Source of the DNA: an uncultured Clostridia bacterium
GTDB taxonomy: Bacteria; Bacillota; Clostridia; Oscillospirales; Acutalibacteraceae
Reading direction: 5' to 3'
Length of the DNA stretch: 35,115 nt
Assembly: GCA_947628175.1 (NCBI GenBank)
Contig: CANQZA010000018.1
Span: 1-35,115, forward strand
Part shown: in pieces, positions 7,325-30,816 of the stretch
How the letters are laid out: every line of letters begins with the position of its first letter
Position numbering within the stretch: position 1 is the stretch's first letter
The notes under the pieces: model-generated
Told to the model about the DNA's origin: nothing
Databases searched by the model: none
What the model saw: the letters and a program-made list of their open reading frames with translations, nothing else
Position numbers and translations under genes: made by a program

Positions 7325-7327
7325 TCT

Positions 7328-9235
7328 ATGGTTTTTGATTGCAAAATGATTATCAATAAGCTTAGTATTGAGGGAAATAAGCTTAATCTTTCAGCTTCAA
7401 TCAGTTGCCCTTTTGATATGGATGTGACTTCCCCCAAGGCGAAGATTGTTTTTGAGTGCGGCTCGAAAACAAGGCGTCTGCCGTTTCTTGTTACAAATTA
7501 TTTCAGGCAGAAGCAGAGTGATTCGTGCATTGTCGTGTGTACCTATACATTTCTGATTGACAAAATATTTTATAATTACGACAGTGTGAGCGATATAAGA
7601 GCACGGATAGATTTTTATTATGGTGAAAATGAGGTTGAAAAAGTCCCGTTTACTGTATCGACAAATGTGCTCAATGAAAATCCGAACCTTGAACTTGAGG
7701 AAAAATATATTGAATACGAGTGCTTTAACGGTGTTACCGTATTTGACAGTGAGGAGGATTATGACGCCTCAAAAAGAGAGAGTGCGGACAGTTACACCTT
7801 TAGCTTTGACTGTGAAAACAGCAATATAATCCTTTCAAAGATACCGCAGGCAAGGCAGGAGATAAGCTTTGCGCAGAGAAGCCGGATCATTGTTCCCGTT
7901 GTAAGATTTGTATTTTTTGTTGTAAGAATAATTCTTGCGGTTTTGCTGCTGCCGTATTTTGCCGCTGACGGTTTTTTTGCGGCGCTCGACATTCTGCCGA
8001 AGAGGCAGACCAAGCAGATTGACGGTCTGGGCAAAAACATTTTTGTACAGATAAAGATAAATCTCTCATCGTTTATGAAAACAAGCTTCAAAAAGGCAAC
8101 TTTTATCAACAATGTGAGAAAACCGATTTTTGCGGTTTGCAGGCTATATTATAAAATACTGTCCAAAAAGGATATTGTTCCCAACAGGATTGCTTTTATG
8201 TCCGGCAGGCGAGACGAGCTTGGCGGAAATCCGCAGTTTGTATATGATTTAATCAAGGACAAAGAGGATATTGATTTTCAATTTCTGCTGTTTTCAGATC
8301 CGTCAGGGCACAATAAAATTAAAAATATCAGGCGGTTTCTCAGGTTGTATGCAACCTCTAAGATTGTGATTATTGACGATTATTTCAGACTGCTTAATAT
8401 TGTGGACAAGCGCGAGGGAGTAAAACTGTTTCAGCTCTGGCATGCCTGCGGCGCGTTTAAGACTTTCGGCTTTACAAGGCTGGGCAAAAAGGGAGGACCC
8501 AAGCAGACTGATCCCAACCACAGAATGTACGACTATGCCATTGTAAGCTCGCAAGAGATAGCAAAGCACTATGCGGAGGGATTTGGACTCAGCGACGAAT
8601 GTATTGCGGCAACGGGTATTCCCCGCACCGATATTTTTATGGACAGCGAGTATGCCGACAGGGTGAGAAAGCAGTTTTATGAAAAGTATCCTCGGCTTAA
8701 AAATAAAAAGATTATGCTGTTTGCCCCCACTTTCAGAGGAAACGGGCAGATGAGTGCCTATTATCCTACGGATGCCTTTCATGCTGTGGATATGTATGAG
8801 GAACTCGCAGGGCAGTATGCGATATTGATTAAGCTGCACCCGTTTTGTAAGGAGAGATTTGAAATACCTCCTCAGTACAGCGATGTGATAATAGATTTAT
8901 CGCAGGAGGACGAACTCAACGACCTGCTGTTTGTCACCGATTTGCTTGTAACCGATTATTCAAGCGTTGTCTTTGAGGCTTCTCTTTTAAATATACCTAT
9001 GCTTTTTTACGCATACGATTTATACGACTATATTTCAAGCCGTGATTTTTATTATGATTTTGAGAGCTTTGTTCCCGGTAAAATCGTATTTTCCGAAAGA
9101 GAAATGCTTGAGGCAATCACACAAAATGATTTTGAGCAGGATAAGGTAAGCGGCTTTAAGACAAAGTTTTTTGACCATCTTGACGGCAAATCAAGCCAAA
9201 GAGTGGCGAATTTGATTTTGGAGAATTTAAAATAA
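7328..9235 (+). CDS. CDP-glycerol/CDP-ribitol phosphotransferase, second copy with membrane segment
   Basis: A 635-residue paralogue of the preceding protein. It has a longer beta-rich N-terminal region (1-180), then a hydrophobic segment (about 187-215) likely to insert in or dip into the membrane. The GT-B catalytic domain repeats the landmarks: Q-L-W-H-A-C-G (H372), F-A-P-T-F-R near 465, K-L-H-P near 505 and T-D-Y-S-S-V near 545. The central domains of the two copies are clearly alike, and the DNA encoding Q-L-W-H-A-C-G-A-F-K is identical or nearly so in both, so this is a tandem duplication or shows gene conversion. One enzyme may prime and the other extend the teichoic acid chain; which does what cannot be read from sequence. 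AGGAG lies 12 nt before the ATG, so a slightly different start is possible. Confidence 0.85.
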   Translation: MVFDCKMIINKLSIEGNKLNLSASISCPFDMDVTSPKAKIVFECGSKTRRLPFLVTNYFRQKQSDSCIVVCTYTFLIDKIFYNYDSVSDIRARIDFYYGENEVEKVPFTVSTNVLNENPNLELEEKYIEYECFNGVTVFDSEEDYDASKRESADSYTFSFDCENSNIILSKIPQARQEISFAQRSRIIVPVVRFVFFVVRIILAVLLLPYFAADGFFAALDILPKRQTKQIDGLGKNIFVQIKINLSSFMKTSFKKATFINNVRKPIFAVCRLYYKILSKKDIVPNRIAFMSGRRDELGGNPQFVYDLIKDKEDIDFQFLLFSDPSGHNKIKNIRRFLRLYATSKIVIIDDYFRLLNIVDKREGVKLFQLWHACGAFKTFGFTRLGKKGGPKQTDPNHRMYDYAIVSSQEIAKHYAEGFGLSDECIAATGIPRTDIFMDSEYADRVRKQFYEKYPRLKNKKIMLFAPTFRGNGQMSAYYPTDAFHAVDMYEELAGQYAILIKLHPFCKERFEIPPQYSDVIIDLSQEDELNDLLFVTDLLVTDYSSVVFEASLLNIPMLFYAYDLYDYISSRDFYYDFESFVPGKIVFSEREMLEAITQNDFEQDKVSGFKTKFFDHLDGKSSQRVANLILENLK

Positions 9236-19234: not shown

Positions 19235-19274
19235 AATAACACCTCAGGCAATAATGCTTTTGAGGTGTTATTTT
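19235..19274. terminator. 14-bp perfect hairpin spanning the M23 ribosome-binding site
   Basis: AAAATAACACCTCA pairs exactly with TGAGGTGTTATTTT. On the plus strand it could end the MGMT-like transcript, although it has only four terminal T residues. It also contains the GAGGTG used by the ATG at 19275. On the minus strand it is followed by TTTTTT, but no minus-strand gene is near. Confidence 0.55.
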
Positions 19275-19994
19275 ATGGCGACTAAAGACAAACCAAACAA
19301 TAAAAATCTGAGAGCTCTTTTTTCGGTTATATGCCTTTGCATAATTGCTCTGGGACTTATCGTGTATTTCTCGACACAGAGTGCTGATACCACAAAAGTT
19401 AATGAGGCGACGACACTTGCGCAGACGACTGAAGTTCAAAAAAGGGTAACGGTTAAGGATACTACCGAAAAGAAAACCGTGCAGAGTGAAAAGACGACGA
19501 AATCCGCAGGCAAAACAACAACTGCCGCAAAGGAAAAAACCACGGAAAAGGCTACCATGCAGGCAGGCGATACAAATACGCCTTATAAATCATTTTACAA
19601 ATATCCCTGCCGGGAAACAGTCGTTTCAGGCTACAGTGAGGAGCTTGTCAGAAACGATACCATGGGCGATTATCGTGCGCATACCGCAGTGGATTTCAAG
19701 TGTGACGCAGGTGAAAAAATAGTGGCAATAAATGACGGACTTGTCCTTTCCGTCACCAAGGATAATTTGCTTGGAAATATTATTGAGATTGACCATGGCG
19801 GCAAGCTTGTTGCGAGATACTGCGGTCTGGATACGGTGCATGTTTCAAAGGGCGACTATGTAACAATCGGACAGACTGTCGGCACTGCCGGTTCCGTTCC
19901 TTTTGAAGCAAGCGGTGAAACGCATATTCATTTTGAAACAAGGCTTGACGGAAAACTTGTGAATCCTCTTGATGTAATGGGAAAAAGTGAATAG
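19275..19994 (+). CDS. Membrane-anchored M23-family protein, SpoIIQ-like
   Basis: A 239-residue protein with one N-terminal transmembrane helix (about 13-33), a Thr/Lys-rich linker (about 36-98) and a LytM/M23 domain (about 115-235). The zinc motif H136-x-x-x-D140 and the H217-x-H219 pair are present, whereas the catalytic His usually found in a Y-x-H-L motif is Gly (Y-C-G-L). That architecture fits SpoIIQ, the forespore partner of SpoIIIAH, in which the zinc site is often kept but endopeptidase activity is doubtful. The ATG at 19275 follows GAGGTG; an upstream in-frame ATG at 19254 lies inside the hairpin. It is followed by a terminator and is probably monocistronic. Assignment to SpoIIQ rests on architecture alone. 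Confidence 0.7.
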   Translation: MATKDKPNNKNLRALFSVICLCIIALGLIVYFSTQSADTTKVNEATTLAQTTEVQKRVTVKDTTEKKTVQSEKTTKSAGKTTTAAKEKTTEKATMQAGDTNTPYKSFYKYPCRETVVSGYSEELVRNDTMGDYRAHTAVDFKCDAGEKIVAINDGLVLSVTKDNLLGNIIEIDHGGKLVARYCGLDTVHVSKGDYVTIGQTVGTAGSVPFEASGETHIHFETRLDGKLVNPLDVMGKSE

Positions 19995-20372: not shown

Positions 20373-20708
20373 ATGACACGGAGGAAAAAGGTTACACAAA
20401 AGGAGGTCTGCGAAGGCTTGAGGCGCCTTGCCTTTGGAGAAATAACAGACGCAGTTTCGCTCCTTTTTGAATCTGAGGAAAAAATACTCGAAACCCTGCC
20501 GCAGCTTAATCTTTTTAATGTCAGCGAGATAAAGAGGCCAAAGGGCGGAGGAATGGAAATTAAATTTTTCGACAGGCTGAAGGCTCTTGATAAATTACGG
20601 GAAGTTATATCTGCCGACAGTGAAAAATCTTCTGTATCCTTTTATGACGCACTTGAAAAAAGTGCTTCGGGTGCGGAGAGTATTTATAAGGATGATGAAG
20701 ATGAGTAG
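20373..20708 (+). CDS. Phage terminase small subunit-like protein
   Basis: A 111-residue protein with a basic N-terminus, a helical region, and a central motif 'GGMEIKFFDRLKALDKL' like the C-terminal part of PBSX XtmA-type small terminases (I-K-F-F-D-x-L-K-A). It lacks the usual N-terminal helix-turn-helix length, being shorter than most (about 150-250). It would recognise DNA and stimulate the ATPase of the large subunit, encoded immediately downstream with an 8-nt overlap. GGAGATGG precedes the ATG. It is the first gene of the operon. Confidence 0.7.
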   Translation: MTRRKKVTQKEVCEGLRRLAFGEITDAVSLLFESEEKILETLPQLNLFNVSEIKRPKGGGMEIKFFDRLKALDKLREVISADSEKSSVSFYDALEKSASGAESIYKDDEDE

Positions 20709-21960
20709 CTTTATTCCTTTTTCAAAAAAGCAGCTTGCAGTTCTTACATGGTGGTGCAAAAACAGCAGTGTCAAGGACAAAAACGGAATCATATGCGACG
20801 GCGCCGTTCGTTCGGGCAAAACGCTTTGCATGAGCATTTCCTTTGTGAGCTGGGCGTTTTACCATTTCGGCGACGCGTCATTTGCCATATGCGGCAAGAC
20901 GGTTGCCTCCCTGAGACGAAATGTGATAACGCCGCTTATCCCTGCGCTTAAATCGCTCGGATTTTCATGTGATTATAAAATCAGCAGAAATCTGTTGAAA
21001 ATTACAAAGGGTCGGATTGAAAACAGATTTTATCTTTTCGGCGGAAGAGACGAATCATCCGCGTCTTTGATACAGGGTATGACCCTGTGCGGCGTGATGC
21101 TTGACGAGGTGGCGCTTATGCCGCGGTCCTTTGTTGAGCAGGCACTTGCCAGATGCTCTGCCGAAAATGCCAAATATTTTTTTAACTGCAATCCTGAGCA
21201 TCCCTACCATTGGTTTTATATTGAGTGGATAAAAAAATATAAGGAAAAAAATGTTCTTTACATACATTTTTCAATGGAGGATAACCCTTCACTTTCAAAA
21301 GCAGTTATAAACCGGTATAAAAGTCTTTATTCGGGCGCCTTCTATCAGCGGTTTGTTGAGGGGAAATGGGTATCGGCACAGGGGTTGGTTTACCCGATGT
21401 TTGACACGCAAAGGCATATTAAAAAACCGCGCTTGAATATGAACAGATATTATCTGTCCTGTGACTACGGAACGGTAAATCCCTTTTCCCTCGGGCTGTG
21501 GGGAGAGGGAAATGACGGCTGGTACAGGATTGATGAATATTATCATTCAAGCCGTGATGCGGGAATTCAGCTTACCGACGAGGAATATTACGGTGCGGTT
21601 AAAAAACTTGCGCAGGGTAAAAAAATAGAGGCCTTAATTATAGACCCGTCTGCCGCATCTTTTATTCAGACCGTTATGCGGCATAATGAATTCAGGGTTA
21701 TCAAAGCGGATAATGATGTGATGTCGGGGATTAACCGTGTATGTCAGGCATTAAAAAACGATGAGATTTTTATTGCACCAAACTGCCGTGACACAATCCG
21801 TGAGTTTTCACAGTACCGCTGGGATGACAGTATAAAAAAAGACGCTCCGAAAAAAGAAAATGACCACGCAATGGATGATATAAGGTACTTCGTCTCAACA
21901 GTAATAAAAGATGGGCCGTCTGCCGATTCTTTTATCTCCATTGCAGTAGAAAGGAAATGA
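20701..21960 (+). CDS. Phage terminase large subunit (PBSX/XtmB type)
   Basis: A 419-residue DNA-packaging motor. Walker A-like D-G-A-V-R-S-G-K-T is at 33-41 and the Walker B-like 'GVMLDEVALM' has Asp-Glu at 135-136. The C-terminal RNase H-like nuclease has acidic clusters in S-C-D-Y-G-T, 'LIIDPSAASF' and D-H-A-M-D-D. All catalytic landmarks of both domains look intact, so packaging competence is plausible. ATG at 20701 is chosen: AAGGA lies 8 nt upstream and the frame overlaps the small-subunit stop. Confidence 0.9.
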   Translation: MSSFIPFSKKQLAVLTWWCKNSSVKDKNGIICDGAVRSGKTLCMSISFVSWAFYHFGDASFAICGKTVASLRRNVITPLIPALKSLGFSCDYKISRNLLKITKGRIENRFYLFGGRDESSASLIQGMTLCGVMLDEVALMPRSFVEQALARCSAENAKYFFNCNPEHPYHWFYIEWIKKYKEKNVLYIHFSMEDNPSLSKAVINRYKSLYSGAFYQRFVEGKWVSAQGLVYPMFDTQRHIKKPRLNMNRYYLSCDYGTVNPFSLGLWGEGNDGWYRIDEYYHSSRDAGIQLTDEEYYGAVKKLAQGKKIEALIIDPSAASFIQTVMRHNEFRVIKADNDVMSGINRVCQALKNDEIFIAPNCRDTIREFSQYRWDDSIKKDAPKKENDHAMDDIRYFVSTVIKDGPSADSFISIAVERK

Positions 21961-21964
21961 GGCT

Positions 21965-23092
21965 TTGGGTTTTTTATCGTTTAAACGAAAAAGCAAAAAT
22001 ACAACGGCCGCCTCTTCAGTCCAGACATCAATGGGCACACACCACCCTTATTATCAGCTTTCAAGCTACTTTCCCGCGGGGATGGATACAAGAGTCTATG
22101 ACTCTTTGAGAAACGCAGTACCGATAATAGACGCGGCGATTAATAAAATTGTGCGGCTTGCCGAGGGCTTTCATTTTGAAACGGGCTGCGAGCAGACGGA
22201 TTATAGGATAAATTCGTTTTTTGAGCATATCAATGTCGGAGGAAATCAGCAGGGAATCGGGGCATTTGTATCCAATTATCTCAATCAGCTTCTGACCTAC
22301 GGTACGGCAGTAGGTGAAATTGTCCTGAGCGGCACCGGAATTTATGCGCTTTATAACAGTGATCTTAAAAGCATTGAATTGAAAAGGGCGGCAAATATGA
22401 TAGATGTTGAGTTTTATAATTCGGGAACAAAGCTTTCCAATCCGCAGCTGATACTCTATTCTGTGCTCAATCCCAGAGCGGACGATTTATGCGGCACAAG
22501 TCTTTTGAACGGTCTGCCGTTTATCAGTGATATTCTGATGAAAATTTATAACACCATCGGTGAGAACTGGGAGCATGCAGGCAATGTAAGATATGCTGTG
22601 ACATGCAAGCCTTCAGGCGACGGTACAGACCGTGATTTTTCAAAAGAGCGCGCAGAACAGATGGCCTCTGCCTGGAAAGAGGCGATGGATTCAAAAACGG
22701 TTAAGGATTTTGTGGCAGTCGGTGATGTAAGCGTTAAGGTAATCGGTGCAGACAATATAAGTCTTGACAGTGAAATTCCCGTAAAACAGCTTCTTGAACA
22801 GATTGTGGCAAAAACAGGTCTGCCGCCGTTTATGCTTGGTCTCAGTTGGTCGTCTACCGAAAGAATGAGTACTCAGCAGGCGGATATTCTCACGACAGAG
22901 CTTCAGTCATACAGACGCATTCTGACTCCTGTAATAGCGAAAATAGGCAATATGTATCTTGCCTTTAACGGCATTAATCGGGAGGCAAAAGTCGTATGGG
23001 ATGAAATTACGCTTCAGGATGAGTGTGACTCGGCAAGAGCGCGGCTTTATCTTGCGCAGGCGGATAAATTAAATAGAGAGGAGCAGATATGA
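21965..23092 (+). CDS. Phage portal protein (TTG start)
   Basis: A 375-residue protein between terminase and the prohead protease, the usual place for the portal. The C-terminal part, including 'TGLPPFMLGLSWSSTERMST' followed by Q-Q-A-D-I-L-T-T-E-L, is characteristic of portal proteins. The start is TTG at 21965 after AGGAAATGAGG; there is no suitable ATG before the conserved region. The 3' end overlaps the protease gene as ATGA. The dodecameric ring would form the DNA entry and exit channel and the docking point for the connectors. Confidence 0.82.
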   Translation: MGFLSFKRKSKNTTAASSVQTSMGTHHPYYQLSSYFPAGMDTRVYDSLRNAVPIIDAAINKIVRLAEGFHFETGCEQTDYRINSFFEHINVGGNQQGIGAFVSNYLNQLLTYGTAVGEIVLSGTGIYALYNSDLKSIELKRAANMIDVEFYNSGTKLSNPQLILYSVLNPRADDLCGTSLLNGLPFISDILMKIYNTIGENWEHAGNVRYAVTCKPSGDGTDRDFSKERAEQMASAWKEAMDSKTVKDFVAVGDVSVKVIGADNISLDSEIPVKQLLEQIVAKTGLPPFMLGLSWSSTERMSTQQADILTTELQSYRRILTPVIAKIGNMYLAFNGINREAKVVWDEITLQDECDSARARLYLAQADKLNREEQI

Positions 23093-24057
23093 CACACGGA
23101 TATATTGAAAAAAGTGTCGCTCCCGTACAAAGCGACATTGAAAAAATCAACCGTTTCACAAAAAGAGAATTTGATATGGACAGCCTTTATATTTTTAGTG
23201 TTGTGCTTTGCAACAATGATCTTGACAGGGACTGGGAAAAGTTTTCAACGGGTACACTTAATCAGCTTGCCGAAAAATTTCTCGGCAGAACGGGTATTTG
23301 CGACCATTCAATGAAATCAAGCGATCAGATGGCGCGGATTTTTGATACATGGGTTGAAAAGGTTGCAGGCAGAAAAACTGCTGACGGCGAAGAATTTTAT
23401 CAGCTTAAGGCAAAGGCGTATATGGTAAGAAGCGAGGAAAATGCTTCCATGATTACCGATATAGATGCGGGAATCAAGAAAGAGGTTTCCGTCTCCTGTT
23501 CAGTCGGCAGCCGCATATGCTCAATTTGCGGTACAGACAAGGCGGAATCAAGATGTGAGCATATAGGCGGAAAAAAATATAACGGCAAAACGGCATTTAC
23601 GGTTTTAAATGACGCCAAGGATGCTTATGAATTCAGCTTTGTGGCAGTTCCCGCTCAGAGAGAAGCGGGCGTTACAAAATCATTTAATTTACATGAGGAT
23701 GATGTGAATATGACAGACATTATTAAAGCACTTAACAATTGCACAGATGAGATTGTGCTCACAAAAAAGCAGGCAAAGGCTCTTCTAAGCCATATGGATG
23801 AGCTTGAAACAGAGGCACAGCTCGGCAGAGAATACAAAAAAAGTCTTGCCGATGAGGTGATTATGCTTTGTTCGGCGGCAGTTCCCGAAATGGATTTAAA
23901 GGTTTTCGGCTCTGTTGCACAGGTTATGACGGCCAATGAGCTTATTGCCTTTAAAAAAGCGTTTTTAAAGCGTACAGGCTCTCAGAATGTTCGTGTTCAG
24001 ACAGTACCGCAGAAAAATGGATTATCTGAGAAAGAATACGGTCAGTTTAAAATTTAG
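23089..24057 (+). CDS. Prohead protease fused to a scaffold-like C-terminus
   Basis: A 322-residue protein. The N-terminal half resembles HK97-type (U35) prohead proteases: H73 in I-C-D-H-S, S136 in E-V-S-V-S-C-S-V-G, and the later Y-E-F-S-F-V-A-V-P-A-Q. An insertion with C144-x2-C147-x8-C156-x-H158 looks like a small zinc knuckle. The C-terminal part (about 215-300) is helical and charged, consistent with an internal scaffolding delta domain, so one gene would supply both protease and scaffold. It overlaps portal by 4 nt and precedes the capsid gene. Confidence 0.75.
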   Translation: MTHGYIEKSVAPVQSDIEKINRFTKREFDMDSLYIFSVVLCNNDLDRDWEKFSTGTLNQLAEKFLGRTGICDHSMKSSDQMARIFDTWVEKVAGRKTADGEEFYQLKAKAYMVRSEENASMITDIDAGIKKEVSVSCSVGSRICSICGTDKAESRCEHIGGKKYNGKTAFTVLNDAKDAYEFSFVAVPAQREAGVTKSFNLHEDDVNMTDIIKALNNCTDEIVLTKKQAKALLSHMDELETEAQLGREYKKSLADEVIMLCSAAVPEMDLKVFGSVAQVMTANELIAFKKAFLKRTGSQNVRVQTVPQKNGLSEKEYGQFKI

Positions 24058-24079
24058 ATAACGATAAGGAGAAATTAGT

Positions 24080-25072
24080 ATGGCATACGATAACATAAGA
24101 CTTGAAAAAGGACTTTACACAACAGGAAAATCATTTACGCAGGCTCTGGAGGAGCTTGATCCTTCGGAAAACTATAAGGGAACTTCACTTGAAGGTCTTG
24201 ATGCGTTTGAGCGCCAGCTCAAAAGGTTTGACATCAAGGTGTCCGGACCGGATTCCGATACGATAGCAAAATTCTTCAGCACAACAGATTCGTCGGCGCT
24301 TTTCCCGGAATATATTGCAAGAGCAGTTGCAATCGGCGCTGAGAATCATTCAAAAATTGAAAAAATTATTGCAACAACCACAAGAATAGACTCTCTTGAT
24401 TACAGATCGTATCAGACGATTATGACAAGCAGTCAGCTTGAGCTTCTGAATACAGATGAGGGGCAGTCTTTTACAGAGGTTCCTATCAAAACGAACGATA
24501 CGCTCACAAAGCTTCATAAATACGGCAGACTTCTTGTTGCTACATACGAGGCAATTAAATTTCAAAAGCTTGATCTTTTTTCGGTAATTCTTAAACAGAT
24601 AGGCGCACATATATCAAACAGCCAGTTCAGATCCGCTCTTCTTGTGATTGAAAACAGTAATGTAGAAAAAATTTCGGCTACTCCCGAGGGTATCAAGTAC
24701 GAGGATCTTGTCAATCTCTGGAACAGCTTTGACGCTTATAATATGACAACTCTTGTCGCCTGCGGAAAGGATGTTGCAAATATTCTTAAAATGCCGGAAT
24801 TCAGGGACGCAAACGCGGGTCTTGATTTTCACGGAACAGGCAGAGTCGTAACGCCTCTTGGCGCTGAGCTTTTGCGTTGTGATAATTACAACGAAGGCAA
24901 CCTTATCGGCCTTGATAAGAGTTGTGCACTTGAGAGGGTTGAGGCCGCGCCTGTTACCGTAGAGTTTGAAAAGATTATTGACCGTCAGTTTGAAAGAGCA
25001 GCCATTTATACCATTGTAGGATTTTCAAAAATTCTTGACGGTGCGTCAAAATATCTTACAACGCACGAATAA
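24080..25072 (+). CDS. Major capsid protein, HK97 fold
   Basis: A 330-residue protein in the canonical slot after protease/scaffold, preceded by AAGGAG. A helical N-terminal arm (1-60) is followed by P-domain and A-domain-like segments ending 'FERAAIYTIVGFSKILDG', typical of HK97-like major capsids. A cleavage site for the protease cannot be placed with confidence. It has no stop or truncation and is probably the most abundant product of the operon. Confidence 0.8.
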   Translation: MAYDNIRLEKGLYTTGKSFTQALEELDPSENYKGTSLEGLDAFERQLKRFDIKVSGPDSDTIAKFFSTTDSSALFPEYIARAVAIGAENHSKIEKIIATTTRIDSLDYRSYQTIMTSSQLELLNTDEGQSFTEVPIKTNDTLTKLHKYGRLLVATYEAIKFQKLDLFSVILKQIGAHISNSQFRSALLVIENSNVEKISATPEGIKYEDLVNLWNSFDAYNMTTLVACGKDVANILKMPEFRDANAGLDFHGTGRVVTPLGAELLRCDNYNEGNLIGLDKSCALERVEAAPVTVEFEKIIDRQFERAAIYTIVGFSKILDGASKYLTTHE

Positions 25073-25092
25073 AAGCAAGGGGAAGCGCTGCG

Positions 25093-25449
25093 ATGACGGA
25101 TTGTAATTTAATCAGGGATGAGCTTGTCAAAATTACGGGAATGCGTGAAGAGGAAGTACAAAGATATGACAGTCAGATTGAAAATACCGCCAAATATATC
25201 TGCTCACTTCTTAAAAGCAGTGAGCTGGAAAATGACAGTCGTACGGTTCATCTTTGCGCGTCAAAGGTCTATTACAAAATCGCTTTATTACAGTATTCAA
25301 GCGACAATGTGGCCTCTTTTAAAGCAGGAGATATATCCTATACAAGGGACAGCAGCTTTCTTGAAAATGTGAAAGCGCTTATGACGCTTGCACTTGAGGA
25401 GTGCAGAGACTTTGTAAGCCTCGATAACTTTGTTTTTGAGGCGGTGTAA
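25093..25449 (+). CDS. Head-tail connector-like protein (gp6-type position)
   Basis: A 118-residue, largely alpha-helical protein directly after the capsid gene. Size, predicted helices and place fit the adaptor ring that binds the portal (HK97 gp6 / SPP1 gp15 role). No signature motif was recognised, so the call is from context. It is followed 1 nt later by the next gene. Confidence 0.55.
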   Translation: MTDCNLIRDELVKITGMREEEVQRYDSQIENTAKYICSLLKSSELENDSRTVHLCASKVYYKIALLQYSSDNVASFKAGDISYTRDSSFLENVKALMTLALEECRDFVSLDNFVFEAV

Positions 25450-25450
25450 A

Positions 25451-25813
25451 ATGAACAATTGTGCAATCATTATATCTGACAGGCTCGACAAAACAGGCAA
25501 TACAGTTTATCTCAGAGACGAAAGCTGGATTTCAACGCCGTTTAAGGCATGTATTTTCAGGCTGTGGAACAGGCAGAGGTCGGCATTTGAGCACGACTTT
25601 ACTGAAATAGGGCAGGTTACAGACGATTACTACCTTTATCTGGGACCTGCCGAACACAATATAACCGCTCTGAGCGAGAACGCTGTCGTACTGGCGGACG
25701 ACGGAAAATATGAATTCAAAAGAAGAAACGAATTTAAATCAGGCGATGATGTTCTGTACTATACAGGTATTTTAAAGAAAATTCAGGGGGAATATGATTA
25801 TGATGATGAATGA
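25451..25813 (+). CDS. Head-completion (stopper-like) protein
   Basis: A 120-residue, beta-rich protein with an acidic C-terminus, second after the capsid gene. The slot is that of the stopper/head-closure protein (SPP1 gp16-like). The ATG at 25451 follows GAGGCGGTG. Its 3' end overlaps the following gene by 14 nt. Function is inferred from order and size only. Confidence 0.5.
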   Translation: MNNCAIIISDRLDKTGNTVYLRDESWISTPFKACIFRLWNRQRSAFEHDFTEIGQVTDDYYLYLGPAEHNITALSENAVVLADDGKYEFKRRNEFKSGDDVLYYTGILKKIQGEYDYDDE

Positions 25814-26210
25814 CAGCGTCAGTTCCTTTATTGAGAGACTTAAAAAATGTCCCGATCTTGACGGTGTGAGAATATTGAGCTCATATCCCTGTGCAATTAA
25901 ACCGACTCAGCTTGACAGAGCGGTTATCGCGGTCGGCTTTTGCGACGCGGATATGTCCTCATCCGGTTTGGGTGAGGACAGCCGCGCAGGCTGCTACTCG
26001 GTTTTTGCCGATATATTTCTGCCGTGGAAAAAGGACAATTCCGTTATGGGCGATATTTTTAAAAACATCTGCCTGTGTGTCGGGGATATGAATATCCTTT
26101 CCATAAAGGCAGACAGGATAGCTGTTGATAAAGCAACAGCCTCCTTTGTCCTTAAATCTGTTTTTACATTTAACGAGGAGATAGACTTTGGAGGTGATGA
26201 CGGTGAATGA
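25800..26210 (+). CDS. Tail-completion/terminator-like phage protein
   Basis: About 136 residues, mixed alpha/beta, ending with an acidic tail. Third after the capsid gene, it sits where tail terminator or tail-to-head joining proteins are found. Several in-frame ATG codons occur (25794, 25800, 25803, 25806); 25800 gives a 9-nt spacing from AGGGGG. If it is a tail terminator its presence is notable, because the tail tube it would cap is not encoded here. Confidence 0.5.
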   Translation: MMMNDSVSSFIERLKKCPDLDGVRILSSYPCAIKPTQLDRAVIAVGFCDADMSSSGLGEDSRAGCYSVFADIFLPWKKDNSVMGDIFKNICLCVGDMNILSIKADRIAVDKATASFVLKSVFTFNEEIDFGGDDGE

Positions 26211-26289
26211 CGAATTTGAAAATGCAGAGCAGGTAAGCGAAATCATACGCCTTGATCAGAAAAGATATGATAAAAATACGGGAGGCTGA
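26203..26289 (+). CDS. Small ORF (28 residues) where tail genes are expected
   Basis: GTG at 26203 with GGAGG eight bases upstream opens a 28-residue charged peptide (N-D-E-F-E-N-A-E-Q-V-S-E-I-I-R-L-D-Q-K-R-Y). It overlaps the preceding gene by 8 nt and ends 1 nt before the next ATG. The good ribosome-binding site and the exact fit suggest it is translated. It occupies the only space left between connectors and baseplate genes. No family recognised. Confidence 0.45.
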   Translation: MNDEFENAEQVSEIIRLDQKRYDKNTGG

Positions 26290-26290
26290 T

Positions 26291-26806
26291 ATGAAAACAA
26301 TAAAAATGAAATTCAGGGATTTTGAATTTCCCGTCAATCCCTCGTCAATCGTAATCACTTCAGACAGAAATGTAAATATCAGTCATATGGCAGACGGCAC
26401 AAGTGCAGCAGGCAGCGTTTCACTCAATCCTGTTGTTGTAAGCGGAGAGGGTGAATTTTACACAGATGAGGCAGAGTCTTATTGCGAATATCTGGCGCAT
26501 CTTCTGAGGGAAGGGCGATCAGGCTGGCTGTTTGTTCCGTTAGGCGAACCGATAAAAGCATTTTTAACGGAATTTTCTTACAGCAAAAGTGTAAGAAAAA
26601 ATTGCATTTCATACCAATTTACCTTCACGCAGGAGCGCGCGGATAAAAAGGAAATTGCCGATTTAGGATATACATATGCTTTAAAGGGCGAAAATGCGTT
26701 TGATATTGCCCATAGAGAGCGTGTTTCCGTCAGTGAAATTATGCTGAAAAATGATTTTCGCACACCATTCAGCATCATAGAAGGAGACAGGGTGATACTC
26801 AGATGA
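26291..26806 (+). CDS. LysM-containing tail/baseplate protein (XkdP-like)
   Basis: A 171-residue protein. The N-terminal part ('FRDFEFPVNPSSI') resembles the tube-proximal domain of PBSX XkdP. The C-terminal 50 residues form a LysM-like module: 'YALKGENAFDIAHRERVSVS', then I-M-L-K-N and G-D-R-V-I-L-R. In contractile tails such proteins (XkdP, gp53-like) join tube and baseplate hub. The ATG at 26291 follows GGGAGG. It overlaps the next gene as ATGA. Confidence 0.75.
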   Translation: MKTIKMKFRDFEFPVNPSSIVITSDRNVNISHMADGTSAAGSVSLNPVVVSGEGEFYTDEAESYCEYLAHLLREGRSGWLFVPLGEPIKAFLTEFSYSKSVRKNCISYQFTFTQERADKKEIADLGYTYALKGENAFDIAHRERVSVSEIMLKNDFRTPFSIIEGDRVILR

Positions 26807-27747
26807 AAATTAAAGTAACGGATATTGACGGTGTGGATTATTATATAGACAAGCCTGTACAGATTATTTTTATTCAGACTGTCGGTGCCGCCTGTGATGC
26901 ACTCTCTGTCACATTCAACAGTGATACATTTACCGCTGAAATTGTTGCGGTGCGGGCCTATGACGGCACACAGACGATATTCAACGGCTATTGCGACAAT
27001 CAGCGTATTACTGAGGACAGCCAATCAAGACAGGTGTATTTCTACGCGCGTTCCTCCGCGTGCATACTGCTTGACAGCCAGGCAATGCCTTTTACATACA
27101 ACAAACCGACGGCGAATCAGCTTTGCTTTTCATTTGCAGAGACTTATGGCTTTAAAAACGGACTTCCTGAGATATATTCGGAAGATAAATACGAAGTTGA
27201 AAAGGGTGTTTCATGCTACGGGGCAATCAACAACTTTGTTTCGCTTTTAACAGGCAGTGAAGTGTATGTTACGCCCGATAACGAGCTGAGACTGCTCCGG
27301 CCGAGCGGCGGCATAAAAACCATCAACGCTTATGATGTAATATCTGCCACAGCAGTGACAAACAGAAGCGAACCGATTTATGAAATCAGCTACAAAAGAG
27401 AGGCATCCTCAGGCTATATCCTTCACACCAGTTCATCTATGGGGAAAAAAATCGGCATAGGGAGAAAGCAGTATGTCAATCTCTCCGCTCTTGCGCAGTG
27501 GCAGAGGGATTATACAATTGCAAAGAGGCTGCGGGATTCCTACAGTGATTATAAAATTCTGGAGATTAAGGTGAACGGCTTTGTCGCCGACGGTCTTTAT
27601 CAGAGGTTTGACTATACGGGAGCAGGAGAAGTATATCACGACTATGTTCTTGCGGAAAAAAAGTATACCTTTGACAGCAGGGGCGGATTTACAAGGCTGA
27701 TTTTGAAAAAAGTATTTGATGTAAAGGAGATTACCTATGTGGATTAG
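26803..27747 (+). CDS. Baseplate hub protein, gpD/XkdQ-like
   Basis: A 314-residue protein of the size and place of XkdQ / late-control protein D, which forms the trimeric hub under the tail tube. Beta-rich N-terminal part, a central region with 'VSCYGAINNFVSLLTGSEVY', and a C-terminal barrel-like part ending 'GGFTRLILKKVF'. It directly follows the XkdP-like gene and precedes the spike, as in PBSX-type baseplate modules. Overlaps at both ends indicate coupled translation. Confidence 0.7.
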   Translation: MKIKVTDIDGVDYYIDKPVQIIFIQTVGAACDALSVTFNSDTFTAEIVAVRAYDGTQTIFNGYCDNQRITEDSQSRQVYFYARSSACILLDSQAMPFTYNKPTANQLCFSFAETYGFKNGLPEIYSEDKYEVEKGVSCYGAINNFVSLLTGSEVYVTPDNELRLLRPSGGIKTINAYDVISATAVTNRSEPIYEISYKREASSGYILHTSSSMGKKIGIGRKQYVNLSALAQWQRDYTIAKRLRDSYSDYKILEIKVNGFVADGLYQRFDYTGAGEVYHDYVLAEKKYTFDSRGGFTRLILKKVFDVKEITYVD

Positions 27748-28087
27748 CAGGCAGATTACCAACGGGCAGGACAGGGAATTGGTTCAGTCGGGCAGAGTAA
27801 CACTGAATACCGCGGGTCAGGTTGAGGCGGTTTCAACAGGCGCGGAGAGAAATGTCAATATGTATTCACCCTTCGGCTACAGCTTTTCTGTCCCGTCAGG
27901 CTGCGAGGTGCTTTTAACCAACAGCGACGGTCAGAAGGCCGCACTCGGTGTTTTGATGGAAAATGACGGGCTTGCGTGCGGAGAAATAAAAATTTCTTCT
28001 CCGTCAGGAGCGTATATTCTGCTTAAAAACAACGGAAGTGTTGTTATAAACGGAAAAGAAATTGATAAAAGCGGAGTGATAAAGTGA
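27737..28087 (+). CDS. Baseplate spike-like protein
   Basis: A 116-residue protein with the alternation of hydrophobic and polar residues expected for an OB-fold plus short beta-helix. The C-terminus 'GAYILLKNNGSVVING' matches the repeating strand pattern of gpV/VgrG-type tips. It lies between hub and gp25-like genes, the usual spike place. It is much shorter than typical membrane-piercing spikes and shows no His-x-His iron motif. Confidence 0.6.
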   Translation: MWISRQITNGQDRELVQSGRVTLNTAGQVEAVSTGAERNVNMYSPFGYSFSVPSGCEVLLTNSDGQKAALGVLMENDGLACGEIKISSPSGAYILLKNNGSVVINGKEIDKSGVIK

Positions 28088-28407
28088 CCTATAAAATCGA
28101 AAACGGCACATATGCCAGAGATGAAAACGGCAGATTTGAAAAAATCGACTATATTGATGAAATTGTTCAAAGCTGCGCAATGGAGCTTAAATGCTTATTG
28201 GGAAGTATATATACCGACAAGGATTTTGGAATCCGTTTTGACAGCTTCCGTTATTTTTTGAATTGGAACTATAATTTATATAATGTCAGGCAGGCGTTAT
28301 CGGATATCAGCGGTGTTTTTGTAAAATCTGTCATATGTACAGACGCACAGGCGGTTGTTAATCTTTTAATTAACGGTTATGAAAGGCAGGTTAAAATAAA
28401 GATATGA
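28084..28407 (+). CDS. gp25/XkdS-like baseplate wedge protein
   Basis: A 107-residue protein in the slot of gp25/gpW/XkdS, next to baseplate J. Its tail 'YERQVKIKI' and the 'FGIRFDSFRYFLNW' centre fit the small wedge/lysozyme-fold family. In sheathed systems gp25 starts sheath assembly. GTG start overlapping the spike stop (GTGA). Confidence 0.6.
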   Translation: MTYKIENGTYARDENGRFEKIDYIDEIVQSCAMELKCLLGSIYTDKDFGIRFDSFRYFLNWNYNLYNVRQALSDISGVFVKSVICTDAQAVVNLLINGYERQVKIKI

Positions 28408-29471
28408 ATTTAACATATGAAGATATACTCGGCAATATGAAGCAGGCATATTATGAAAAATGTCAGGAGCTTGCCGATACGGGCAGTGAAATGGGAAAAC
28501 GCCTTGAGGTGCTTGCGGGTGAGCTTTTTTCACTTTCGTGTTATGCGGATTATGTTTTTAAACAGGCATTTGTTCAGACCGCGACGGGCAAGGCGCTTGA
28601 TCATCACGGGATTATGCGCGGCTGTACGAGAAAAAGTGCCTGTGCGGCACGCGGAGAGCTTACATTCTATATCTCAGAAGCTCTTGAAAATGAGCTTGTA
28701 ATACCAAAATCCACGGTCTGTTCGGTTTATAAAAAGCCGTATCTTCAGTTTGCAACAATTGAGGAGGCTGTGATTCCCGCGGGGCAGACAGCCGTCAGGG
28801 TGACGGCGGAATCTCTCGGTAAATCGGAGGAGTACAATGTTGACGAAGGCACGGTTACAGTTATGGTTAATGCGCCGATAGGCGTTCTCGGCGTTACAAA
28901 CGGCAAATTTTCAGGAGGCTTCGGCGAGGAAACGGAAAGTGCCTACCGTCAGAGAATAATAAACAGCTATAAAATTCCGTCAAACGGTGTAAACGCGCAA
29001 TCGGTTGAAAATGCCGTAATCAATATTGAGAATGTGACGGACTGCCATGTGGGATATAATGCAGATTCATCTATGCTCAATATCATTGTGACAACAAAAA
29101 GCGGAGTGCTTTCACAGGAGGATACACTCGATATAATAAGAAGTACCGCAATAGCGGACCTCTTCGGCATACAGAGGAACATTGCTCTTGCAAAGGCGCA
29201 GGGTTTTAATCTTACTGCGGATATAAAAATCAGAACCGGGTTTGATGCTGAAAAAATCAGACTTGAAGTAACAAAGAGGATGACGGATTTATGCTCAGCA
29301 GAGAGGATCGGCACGAATCTGTCGCTTAACAGTATCACAAAAGAGCTTTTCGGGATAGACGGTCTCAGTGACATCAGTATTCACAGCAGGGACGCTCTTG
29401 GGAATATTATATACTGCGAAAGCGACAGATACCTGAAGCCTCTGGAATTGGCGGTGAACTGCTTTGGCTGA
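28404..29471 (+). CDS. Baseplate J-like protein (XkdT/gp47 family)
   Basis: A 355-residue baseplate wedge protein. Family features are 'ATGKALDHHGIMRGCTRKSA' (about 58-77), the 'VIPAGQTAVRVTAESLGKSE' beta segment, and 'FGEETESAYRQRI' followed by 'SNGVNAQSVENAVINI'. Proteins of this family form the baseplate ring in contractile injection systems and myophages. It overlaps both neighbours by 4-8 nt. Confidence 0.85.
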   Translation: MNLTYEDILGNMKQAYYEKCQELADTGSEMGKRLEVLAGELFSLSCYADYVFKQAFVQTATGKALDHHGIMRGCTRKSACAARGELTFYISEALENELVIPKSTVCSVYKKPYLQFATIEEAVIPAGQTAVRVTAESLGKSEEYNVDEGTVTVMVNAPIGVLGVTNGKFSGGFGEETESAYRQRIINSYKIPSNGVNAQSVENAVINIENVTDCHVGYNADSSMLNIIVTTKSGVLSQEDTLDIIRSTAIADLFGIQRNIALAKAQGFNLTADIKIRTGFDAEKIRLEVTKRMTDLCSAERIGTNLSLNSITKELFGIDGLSDISIHSRDALGNIIYCESDRYLKPLELAVNCFG

Positions 29472-30033
29472 TGATGAAAATATTGAAAAGCGCATAACCG
29501 ATATGTATAAAGCACTCGGCTATGATACAGAAGATCCCCTTATCAGTGCCGAAATTGCGGCATACACCGCCGGAATTTCAATGGTAAAGGAAAAGATAGC
29601 TTATGCTGAACAGGAAACACAGCCGTACACGGCAAAATATGAGGGGCTCGAGTATTTGTGCGAGCTTATGAATGTGGATTCTCATCTGCCTGCCGAAGAG
29701 CTCAGGCAAATTATTATCAAAAGAATGAACACCCGATACGGAGAATATACATTCGGAGAGCTTGCAAAGGCAATTGCCGCGGTAAGCTCAAAAATTAAGG
29801 CGAGTGTCAGCAGAGGCAGAGTTTTATTCAACAATTTGGATGACAAAAGCATTGATATTCTTCCGCAGATAGGAAGGATTATTGAGGAATATATTATGCC
29901 TCCTGCCGTTATCTCGTCAACAGGCAGCGGATGTACCTTTGCATTCTGGGATAATACAGAGTATCGTTTTGAGGAGTACGACGGCTTTAACTGTCCGTTC
30001 TCACTGCTTGAAACCGTGATACCGAATGTTTAA
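29464..30033 (+). CDS. Phage tail protein I/XkdU-like (DUF2313-type)
   Basis: A 189-residue protein directly after baseplate J, matching XkdU/YmfQ/gpI in size and order. An N-terminal helical region and 'RYGEYTFGELAKAIAAVSSK' are visible, then an aromatic C-terminus. It would join the wedge to the fibre. TTG start at 29464 overlapping the J stop by 8 nt, with a weak ribosome-binding site. Confidence 0.65.
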   Translation: MADDENIEKRITDMYKALGYDTEDPLISAEIAAYTAGISMVKEKIAYAEQETQPYTAKYEGLEYLCELMNVDSHLPAEELRQIIIKRMNTRYGEYTFGELAKAIAAVSSKIKASVSRGRVLFNNLDDKSIDILPQIGRIIEEYIMPPAVISSTGSGCTFAFWDNTEYRFEEYDGFNCPFSLLETVIPNV

Positions 30034-30050
30034 AACAGAAAGGAAATTTT

Positions 30051-30533
30051 ATGAGCAGTACAAATAAAACACAAAATCTTAAATTAAACAACTGGATAGC
30101 TTCAGATAAACCGAAAAGAGAAGACTTCAATATGGACAATCAGATTATAGACGCGGCGCTGACCGAGCATAAAAATGATGTCGTTTCCCATATAAATCAG
30201 GAGGAAAGGGAGCGCTGGAATGATTATATGTTCAGCGCAACCTATTTCGGCAACGGCAGTTATTCACGCACAATAACACCGGCCTGTACATTCCCGATAC
30301 GAGCGGGTTTTATTTTTTCAAGCAACAGACCGCTTTCGGTTATTAAGTTTTCGGCGAATCAAAAATATAATTATGCCGCGTTTTTCAGTCCGATGGTAAC
30401 AACGCTCGGTGTAAAGCTGAGCAACGACGCAAAGAGCTTTACGGTTACACAGAATTCGACTGCCGCAACGGAAAACGAATATATGAATCTTAATGAATCA
30501 GGCGTTGCTTATCAGTATGTTTTGTTCAGATGA
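30051..30533 (+). CDS. Short tail-fibre/receptor-binding-like protein
   Basis: A 160-residue protein. Its N-terminus, with 'TQNLKLNNWIASDKPKREDF' and then H-I-N-Q-E-E-R-E-R-W, is the attachment motif of clostridial phage tail fibres. The C-terminal 90 residues form a small beta-rich head. It is short for a fibre and is the last gene of the operon. No chaperone, holin or endolysin follows. Confidence 0.7.
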   Translation: MSSTNKTQNLKLNNWIASDKPKREDFNMDNQIIDAALTEHKNDVVSHINQEERERWNDYMFSATYFGNGSYSRTITPACTFPIRAGFIFSSNRPLSVIKFSANQKYNYAAFFSPMVTTLGVKLSNDAKSFTVTQNSTAATENEYMNLNESGVAYQYVLFR

Positions 30534-30534
30534 C

Positions 30535-30567
30535 AAAAAACCGTCCCTTTAAAACGGGACGGTTTTT
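30535..30567. terminator. Bidirectional terminator between phage-like operon and minus-strand genes
   Basis: AAAAAACCGTCCC and GGGACGGTTTTTT form a 13-bp stem with T-runs on both strands. It ends the phage-like operon (plus) and the small-protein genes (minus). Confidence 0.92.
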
Positions 30568-30816
30568 TTACAACTCATTTTCCTCCTGATATTCCTTTGA
30601 GAATTCTGTATTGAGTTTATCGGGGATAGGAACACCCATTTCGGTTTTCTCATCTGGTTGAACAGTAGGATTTGATACCCACGAGGAATAACGGTTTGTG
30701 AGCTCGGGAGACAGTTTGTACTTTTCCTCAAAGCTCTTTTTGTGCTTGCGCACGGTTGATTCAACATCATAATTGTTAAGACTGCTGATGGTTTGTTCCT
30801 CTTTATTTTTGCTCAT
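30568..30816 (-). CDS. Small protein of unknown function, 82 residues
   Basis: A highly charged, proline-containing soluble protein without signal or membrane segment. The centre 'YKLSPELTNRYSSWVSNPTV' is the most structured-looking part and both ends are acidic and probably disordered. It overlaps the 52-residue gene upstream by 14 nt, so the two are coupled. Both would be transcribed from the sigma-G/F-like promoter at 30982-31011, or by read-through from hemW, ending at the shared terminator. No family recognised. Confidence 0.65.
   Translation of the reverse strand: MSKNKEEQTISSLNNYDVESTVRKHKKSFEEKYKLSPELTNRYSSWVSNPTVQPDEKTEMGVPIPDKLNTEFSKEYQEENEL

What the first reader, a model, noticed from the sequence alone, without database searches (positions are those of the whole stretch)
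20373..30533. Compact phage-derived operon: complete head and baseplate but no sheath, tube or tape measure
Seen: fifteen plus-strand genes, nearly all overlapping or a few nt apart. They run terminase, portal, protease/scaffold, capsid, three connector-type genes, XkdP-, hub-, spike-, gp25-, J- and I-like genes, then a short fibre. Known: PBSX-type contractile modules place sheath (XkdK), tube (XkdM), assembly chaperones and a long tape measure (XkdO) between connectors and XkdP. Here about 80 nt separate them. There is also no integrase, repressor, replication or lysis gene, yet no frame is visibly broken. Inference: a domesticated, very short-tailed particle with the baseplate attached almost directly to the head, serving DNA transfer or cell killing, or a system that borrows tails from elsewhere.
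Basis: partly seen in the sequence, partly recalled or inferred. Interest (0 to 1): 0.88.

Follow-up and report, generated by a model that had tools for sequence, protein, structure and literature searches.

The report
Domesticated phage particle without tail tube
Gut bacteria carry an old, inherited phage-derived gene set that still encodes a DNA-packing head and a landing baseplate, but the tail between them has been stripped away step by step, so it probably makes near-tailless DNA-carrying particles, most likely for exchanging genes.

Summary
Confirmed. The operon at 20373-30533 encodes TerS, TerL, portal, protease/scaffold-position protein, capsid, three neck proteins and a hub-spike-gp25-J-I-fibre baseplate, with no sheath, tube or long tape measure. 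The 80-nt gap is not empty: it holds a conserved 28-codon ORF (26203-26289), probably the stump of the tape measure. The portal occurs once in each of 112 of 200 family genomes. The element's tree follows the host's (r 0.71, 0 of 999 permutations), and gene pairs close enough to measure show purifying selection. Relatives form a reduction series: sheath+tube+short tape measure; tube only, fused into a neck protein in 13 of 33 loci; no tube (the window and 26 relatives of its clade); neck protein fused straight to the fibre's C-terminal domain, without baseplate. TerS of the window's clade also lacks its DNA-binding domain, a trait reported for gene transfer agents (GTAs). Best explanation: a domesticated GTA-like element making near-tailless particles filled with host DNA. 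Particles, packaging and transfer are untested. It could not be matched to the Faecalibacterium FpGTA. Borrowed tails, PBSX-like killing, satellite and decaying-prophage readings fit less well. Novelty: new variant of a known kind, with an unusually clear record of tail loss.

The parts
20373..20708 (+). Small terminase (TerS), 111 aa, lacking the N-terminal DNA-binding (HTH) part
   Evidence: PF03592 matches profile 57-134 of 141 only; HTH found in 80 of 145 distinct TerS, in 0 of 25 of the window's clade (in L167 and L171 of these 25 TerS lies under 250 nt from a contig end)
20701..21960 (+). Large terminase (TerL); ATG at 20701 read by eye
   Evidence: phrog_2 E 1.6e-51, PF03237 7.5e-13
21965..23092 (+). 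Portal protein
   Evidence: phrog_30703 E 3e-126; one match in each of 112 of 200 family genomes
23089..24057 (+). Head protease/scaffold-position protein
   Evidence: phrog_16951 E 1.4e-90 (function unknown); weak phrog_18299 head maturation protease 0.037; present in 61 of 61 loci
24080..25072 (+). Major capsid protein
   Evidence: phrog_3922 E 3.4e-80; PF25209 8e-08
25093..25449 (+). Neck gene con1 (adaptor position, inferred)
   Evidence: Best family E 0.015, function unknown; 61 of 61 loci
25451..25813 (+). Neck gene con2 (stopper position, inferred)
   Evidence: No hit below E 0.03; 56 of 61 loci; fused to the tube domain in 4 loci
25794..26210 (+). Neck gene con3, tail terminator
26203..26289 (+). 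28-codon ORF ending ..VSEIIRLDQKRYDKNTGG, candidate relic of the tape-measure C-terminus
   Evidence: Spacing and start context; profile hit (26.3 bits in the window) at the XkdP start in 63 of 79 distinct loci, and 3 hits elsewhere among 35,350 ORFs scanned, two of them in the same gap of L162 and L079; pN<pS in 91 of 91 pairs of 14 clade loci
26291..26806 (+). XkdP-like protein (LysM-like C-terminus is my reading)
   Evidence: No library hit; conserved position in 44 of 61 loci
26803..27747 (+). Baseplate hub
   Evidence: phrog_177 baseplate hub E 2.9e-04
27737..28087 (+). Spike-like protein
   Evidence: phrog_25991 E 3.5e-10 (function unknown); weak PF06890 Mu gp45 0.026
28084..28407 (+). 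gp25-like wedge
   Evidence: phrog_120 baseplate wedge E 4.7e-04
28404..29471 (+). Baseplate J (wedge)
   Evidence: PF04865 E 2e-24; phrog_6 3.9e-51
29464..30033 (+). Gp I-like protein
   Evidence: No library hit below E 0.03; 41 of 61 loci
30051..30533 (+). Short fibre with C-terminal receptor-binding-type domain (function inferred)
   Evidence: phrog_33092 (function unknown) E 1.8e-07 for residues 1-45; phrog_27373 tail protein 0.007; C-terminal half recurs fused to con3 in state D loci
30536..30569 (+). Terminator-like hairpin and T run after the last gene
   Evidence: Read directly in the sequence; no scan was run

Best explanation
A domesticated, chromosomally fixed, GTA-like element. Shown: an intact, mainly vertically inherited, selected operon for a DNA-packaging head and a baseplate; no sheath or tube in it; a TerS without its DNA-binding domain; and relatives recording stepwise tail loss. 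Inferred: TerL with the truncated TerS fills small capsids with non-specific chromosomal DNA; the portal/con1/con2/terminator neck carries the XkdP-hub-spike complex directly, with the 28-residue peptide as a plug or adaptor left over from the tape measure; the particle is released by lysis encoded elsewhere; it docks through the fibre and J/I wedge; DNA leaves at the cell surface. More speculative: because RcGTA recipients import the delivered DNA with competence proteins, a tail that crosses the envelope could become dispensable, which would explain repeated tail loss in a gene-transfer particle.
For: One portal match in each of 112 of 200 family genomes, with a stop inside it in 4; 70 of 394 in the order, a stop inside in 3; 8 of 391 class genomes, all 8 in the own order. 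Element vs BipA trees in 55 genomes: r 0.71, 0 of 999 permutations (max 0.17), 26 of 52 splits shared. dN/dS 0.04-0.17 in the three clade pairs L154/L155/L164. TerS HTH absent in 25 of 25 of the clade. Reduction series with 13 neck-tube and 8 neck-fibre fusions in 61 loci; tube fold and terminator fold. [quoted passage not shown] RcGTA DNA is imported by competence proteins (PMC10883770 and PMC7296036, passages).
Against: No particle, packaged DNA or transfer has been seen for this operon. No lysis, peptidoglycan-hydrolase or regulator match lies in it. Six of 34 strongly supported element splits conflict with strongly supported host splits. Nine of 61 loci keep the head with no XkdP, baseplate or fibre hit and only one tube domain among them, which fits loss of delivery or a capsid-only role as well. 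Four of 88 loci checked have a gene split over two ORFs, L162 of the window's own clade in four genes. TerS keeps its HTH in all state A and D loci of the family, yet lacks it in 8 of 9 state A loci of family f14, so HTH loss does not track tail loss. Among baseplate genes only J has strong support for its label. Pairs that include the window itself are largely saturated (dN/dS 0.08-0.45 where measurable).
Confidence: 0.66

Rival explanations
1. Tail borrower: the element supplies heads and a baseplate and uses sheath, tube and tape measure from a resident prophage, as capsid-forming satellites (cf-PICI, recalled) use helper tails.
For: The genome has a contractile-tailed prophage with sheath, tube-position protein and 1650-aa tape measure on contig C20. 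The sheath and tube profiles used missed it, so similar prophages in other genomes would be missed too. States D and E look like head-plus-neck satellites.
Against: G071 has the window's layout but no second J gene; J was found in 2 of 17 state D/E genomes. No integrase, primase or regulator match in the operon; mainly vertical inheritance. The element keeps its own baseplate, which a whole borrowed tail would duplicate. J was not searched in G021, G149 or G127.
Confidence: 0.12
2. PBSX-like killing particle: a domesticated defective phage that kills relatives and happens to package DNA.
For: State A relatives have a contractile set in PBSX-like order (PBSX order recalled); PBSX is described as a GTA-like element acting as a tailocin (PMC12946183 discussion).
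Against: No sheath or tube gene in the window's operon, so no puncturing device of its own; killing gives no reason to keep terminase, portal and capsid under strong selection.
Confidence: 0.07
3. Decaying prophage remnant with a tail-gene deletion.
For: Absence of tube, sheath, chaperone and most of the tape measure is real relative to state A; 4 of 88 loci have split genes, L162 in several.
Against: 84 of 88 loci show no split gene; 27 distinct loci of the clade share the layout; dN/dS 0.04-0.17 in clade pairs; found in 79 of 135 sampled genera.
Confidence: 0.05
4. Capsid-only function (DNA storage, sequestration or lysis-linked release) in which delivery is no longer needed and tails erode.
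For: Nine of 61 loci keep the head genes with almost nothing else.
Against: In the window's clade baseplate and fibre genes are under purifying selection; state D fuses the fibre's C-terminal domain to the neck, which suggests selection for docking.
Confidence: 0.1

Closest known systems
FpGTA of Faecalibacterium prausnitzii (PMC12946183; abstract, passages and sections 9, 10, 26 read)
   Same: Compact TerS-TerL-portal-scaffold-capsid operon in a gut member of the same order (order recalled); TerS without obvious DNA-binding domain; reported ~40-nm capsids without identifiable tails and ~9 kb packaged DNA.
   Different: FpGTA baseplate and lysis genes lie in a second operon; the sections read report no tail-reduction series. 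The window's portal and capsid families were not found in three genomes that I take to be Faecalibacterium, so common descent is not shown.
RcGTA (Rhodogtaviriformidae)
   Same: Vertical inheritance, TerS without DNA-binding domain, stopper and terminator ring (passages); con3's relatives match the RcGTA chain 6tba_4A in fold.
   Different: RcGTA has a tail tube, a tape measure protein and a cell-wall peptidase (PMC7296036 passages); no such gene was recognised in the window's operon, apart from the candidate tape-measure stump.
PBSX (Bacillus subtilis)
   Same: Gene order of head, neck, XkdP-like, hub, spike, gp25, J, I (recalled); domesticated.
   Different: PBSX has sheath, tube, chaperones, long tape measure and lysis genes (recalled); none was recognised here.
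Capsid-forming PICI satellites (recalled; only a search listing seen)
   Same: Head and neck genes without a tail.
   Different: Those have integrase, regulation and replication genes and move (recalled); this is fixed, has its own baseplate and no match to such genes.

Membership tests
GTA (six features of PMC9662315, section 3) | Caudoviricete-derived proteins | tested here: met
   TerL, portal, capsid, J family hits
GTA (six features of PMC9662315, section 3) | Encapsidates mostly random host DNA | not testable with these tools
   Indirect only: TerS lacks the HTH
GTA (six features of PMC9662315, section 3) | Fully endogenised in the host genome | tested here: met
   Single copy, host genes on both sides, no integrase or replication match in the operon
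GTA (six features of PMC9662315, section 3) | Own genome cannot be fully packaged | not testable with these tools
   Capsid capacity unknown
GTA (six features of PMC9662315, section 3) | Mostly vertical inheritance, congruent trees | tested here: met
   55 of 61 genomes; 6 of 34 strong element splits conflict with the host gene
GTA (six features of PMC9662315, section 3) | Delivers DNA to other cells | not testable with these tools
   Needs experiment
FpGTA | Homologous head operon | tested here: inconclusive
PBSX | Contractile sheath and tube in the operon | tested here: not met
   No family or profile match in the operon; a resident prophage elsewhere has its own
cf-PICI satellite | Integrase/regulator/replication module with mobility (recalled) | tested here: not met
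   No such match in the operon; host-congruent tree

The most novel reading that the evidence does not exclude
Across one bacterial order a vertically inherited gene transfer system has evolved from a contractile-tailed particle to tailless ones, several times: first losing sheath and chaperone, then shrinking the tube to a single ring fused to the neck and the tape measure to a ~30-residue plug, then losing the tube, and in another branch fusing the receptor-binding domain straight onto the tail terminator. DNA is handed over at the cell surface, probably to the competence machinery, so no tail is needed.
Probability: 0.4. Interest if true: 0.93.

Novelty: new variant of a known kind. Interest (0 to 1): 0.85.

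Why it matters
It would be a further GTA-like lineage in gut Gram-positives, present in over half of one family's sampled genomes, and a candidate source for GTA-like DNA packaging reported in gut taxa for which the sections I read name no operon (PMC12946183: Onthomonas, Gemmiger, Ruminococcus callidus, CAG-115). It also gives living intermediates for how a contractile tail becomes no tail, and tests whether a phage head with a baseplate but no tube can still deliver DNA. A type strain, Clostridium (Faecalispora) sporosphaeroides DSM 1294, carries a form one step less reduced (L093/L228, state B), so the question is open to culture work.

Tried and rejected
Hidden sheath or tube homologues among short ORFs: relatives' profiles find none in the window's operon. 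Sheath/tube elsewhere: PF04984 in the own genome, 0 at E up to 1; profile A2: 5 of 61 genomes, three of them the state A loci and two weak; profile A1: 32 of 61 genomes, none in G000, G021, G149, G071 or G127. PF04984 and A2 missed the sheath of the own prophage (phrog_205 5e-62) and A1 its tube-position protein, so they exclude near relatives only.

Shared host neighbours: of 60 relatives 6 share any neighbour gene with the window. The SpoIIQ-like M23 gene upstream (my reading of the sequence) recurs upstream in nine loci (L059, L060; L153, L155, L156, L158, L163, L164, L178); HemW is not shared, and BipA matches only weakly (27%) in L229.

Free phage relatives: 6 records in the phage collection, five of them unannotated faecal contigs; the one I opened (MT835508.1) is a chromosome piece with ribosomal protein genes by my reading. 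The Microcystis phage match is 26%.

FpGTA homology: tried through a genus marker; inconclusive. A conserved promoter upstream of TerS: the alignment of 13 loci showed nothing clear.

Rows dropped or caveats: 6 of 61 genomes lack a usable BipA (G133, G061, G090, G195, G044, G120) and were left out; G174's is partial. Nine of 161 loci are the same sequence in two collections, so overcount; deduplicated figures are. The mini-ORF profile was seeded with 20 peptides from these loci, which match by construction; pS is near saturation (mean 0.83). The HTH profile was seeded from three loci and may miss divergent HTHs. dN/dS is Nei-Gojobori on 16 pairs; many are saturated, and con3 0.73 (L172/L174) and spike 0.53 (L103/L108) are the highest values. 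States A and E are hardly more clustered on the trees than shuffled labels (A 3 changes vs 2.9-3.0; E 6 vs 7.7). L083 is cut by a contig end.


Full report
What is there. The window is contig C18 of a 2.24-Mb, 121-contig genome. Between a SpoIIQ-like M23 gene and a HemW-like gene on the other strand lies one plus-strand operon with spacings of -20 to +22 nt. TerS, TerL, portal, capsid and J have clear matches to families of named function; hub and gp25 have weaker ones; the protease-position protein, the spike and the fibre N-terminus match families of unknown function; con1-3, the XkdP-like and the I-like genes have nothing better than E 0.015. No integrase, repressor, replication or lysis match lies in it.

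The gap. They hold a 28-codon ORF, 26203-26289, that overlaps con3 by 8 nt, ends 1 nt before the next gene and has a GGAGGTGATG motif ahead of it. A short profile of its core finds it at that place in 63 of 79 distinct loci that have the XkdP gene (67 of 83 with duplicates). Elsewhere it has 3 hits among the 35,350 ORFs scanned, two of them in the same gap. In 14 of 14 clade loci given, the core is found, and pN is below pS in 91 of 91 pairs (means 0.31 and 0.83). In three relatives with a sheath the same C-terminal motif ends proteins of 95, 96 and 195 residues at the tape-measure position. I therefore read it as the stump of the tape measure. That it is translated is not shown.

Distribution. 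The portal is found once in each of 112 of 200 family genomes (79 of 135 genera), in 70 of 394 order genomes (one has an extra weak match) and in 8 of 391 class genomes, all of the own order. Named carriers include Clostridium sporosphaeroides DSM 1294 and Faecalispora jeddahensis among 80 loci kept of 567. Sixty family loci were fetched, of 112 positive genomes, chosen mainly for contig length. With the window, TerS, TerL, portal, protease-position protein, capsid and con1 are in 61 of 61, con2 in 56, con3 in 51, XkdP in 44, hub 42, spike 40, gp25, J and I 41, fibre 37.

The reduction series (61 family loci). State A, 3 loci: sheath (phrog_279 E 1e-30 and 1e-20 for the two tested), tube, chaperone-position ORF, short tape measure, baseplate. 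State B, 30 loci plus 3 without J: tube only, and in 13 of these 33 the tube domain is in one ORF with con3 (9) or con2 (4), which suggests a single ring rather than a polymer. State C, 8 loci including the window: XkdP and baseplate without tube. State D, 8 loci: con3 fused in one ~280-residue ORF to the fibre's C-terminal domain, no baseplate (19 such proteins aligned; 16 of those loci are not in the set of 61). State E, 9 loci: head and mostly neck genes, no XkdP, baseplate or fibre hit. In other families of the order 12 of 20 loci have the sheath, so A is the likely ancestral form. State C needs 4 changes on either tree against 7.6-7.7 with shuffled labels; D needs 4 on the host tree against 6.7 (lowest shuffle 4) and 2 on the element tree against 6.8; A and E are close to shuffled values. 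The window's clade is deep: 27 distinct loci with XkdP and J, none with tube or sheath, and the short gap is kept in all but L162.

Inheritance and selection. For 55 genomes the tree of TerL+portal+capsid+protease-position protein follows the BipA tree (r 0.71; 0 of 999 permutations, highest 0.17; 26 of 52 splits shared; 6 of 34 strong element splits conflict with strong host splits). dN/dS is 0.04-0.17 across genes in the three clade pairs L154/L155/L164 and 0.00-0.21 in L110/L113; pairs with the window itself are largely saturated, 0.08-0.45 where measurable. Split genes occur in 4 of 88 loci (L092, L115, L162, L168); L162 looks decayed or badly sequenced.

Packaging. TerS of the window matches only the second half of PF03592. 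An HTH-bearing N-terminus is present in 80 of 145 distinct TerS and in 0 of 25 of the clade (two of these 25 lie near a contig end); no other frame upstream hides one. [quoted passage not shown] That supports, but does not prove, non-specific packaging. Against a simple rule, the 3 state A and 8 state D loci of the family keep the HTH, while 8 of 9 state A loci of family f14 lack it.

Function. Three of the six GTA features of PMC9662315 could be tested and are met; three need experiments. I commit to a GTA-like DNA-carrying particle (0.66 overall; DNA transfer itself perhaps 0.55). The idea that tails became dispensable because recipients import the DNA with competence proteins is an inference from RcGTA; competence genes were not searched here.

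Relation to FpGTA. PMC12946183 (abstract, passages, sections 9, 10 and 26 read) reports capsids of ~40 nm without identifiable tails and ~9 kb DNA in F. prausnitzii. The window's portal and capsid were not detected in the three genomes that carry the MAM marker. If those are Faecalibacterium, the two elements are separate lineages that reached similar form. No paper describing the present element was seen in the listings of searches of one open-access library; subscription papers and most preprints are outside it.

Borrowed tail. The own genome has a separate contractile prophage on C20 with sheath, tape measure, J and lysin by family match, so the rival is possible here. Among 24 genomes tested, J outside the operon was found in G000, G003, G067 and in G061, whose operon contig is cut; G071, with the window's layout, has only its own.

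Noticed in passing
G000:C20, L242 880-16253: Contractile-tailed prophage in the same genome: sheath 344 aa (phrog_205 5e-62), tube-position protein, tape measure 1650 aa (phrog_6900 5e-75), J, and a lysin (phrog_291 2e-62).
   Followed up: partly
L189, L201, L190, L186, L184 and 14 more: Tail terminator fused to the fibre's C-terminal domain in one ~280-aa protein; in the family loci of this type read, host-type genes follow.
   Followed up: yes
L073, L074, L098, L104 (con2) and L088, L090, L094, L097, L103, L107, L108, L109, L114 (con3): Tail-tube domain fused to a neck protein, suggesting a one-ring tube.
   Followed up: partly
window 19254-19994: SpoIIQ-like M23 peptidase directly upstream, also upstream in nine other loci; may mark the ancestral insertion site.
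   Followed up: partly
MT835508.1 (L332): GenBank 'Bacteriophage sp.' record that reads as a bacterial chromosome piece (ribosomal protein genes) carrying a head-and-neck copy.
   Followed up: partly
window 5837-9232: Two adjacent TarL-like teichoic acid polymerase genes upstream (E 2e-83 and 3e-100, below NCBI's cut-off).
   Followed up: no
L101 (G041): State B copy whose genes are spread over about 15 kb with long spacers.
   Followed up: no
L318 (G467), L325 (G388), L100 (G174): Gene order changed: capsid before portal, capsid before protease-position gene, or neck genes ahead of TerS.
   Followed up: no
L162: Clade copy with TerL, protease-position, capsid and J genes split over two ORFs: decay or sequencing error.
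   Followed up: no
L091 (G067): Head and neck genes followed by a lone ORF that resembles the chaperone-position protein of state A, then host genes: looks like a half-finished tail deletion.
   Followed up: no
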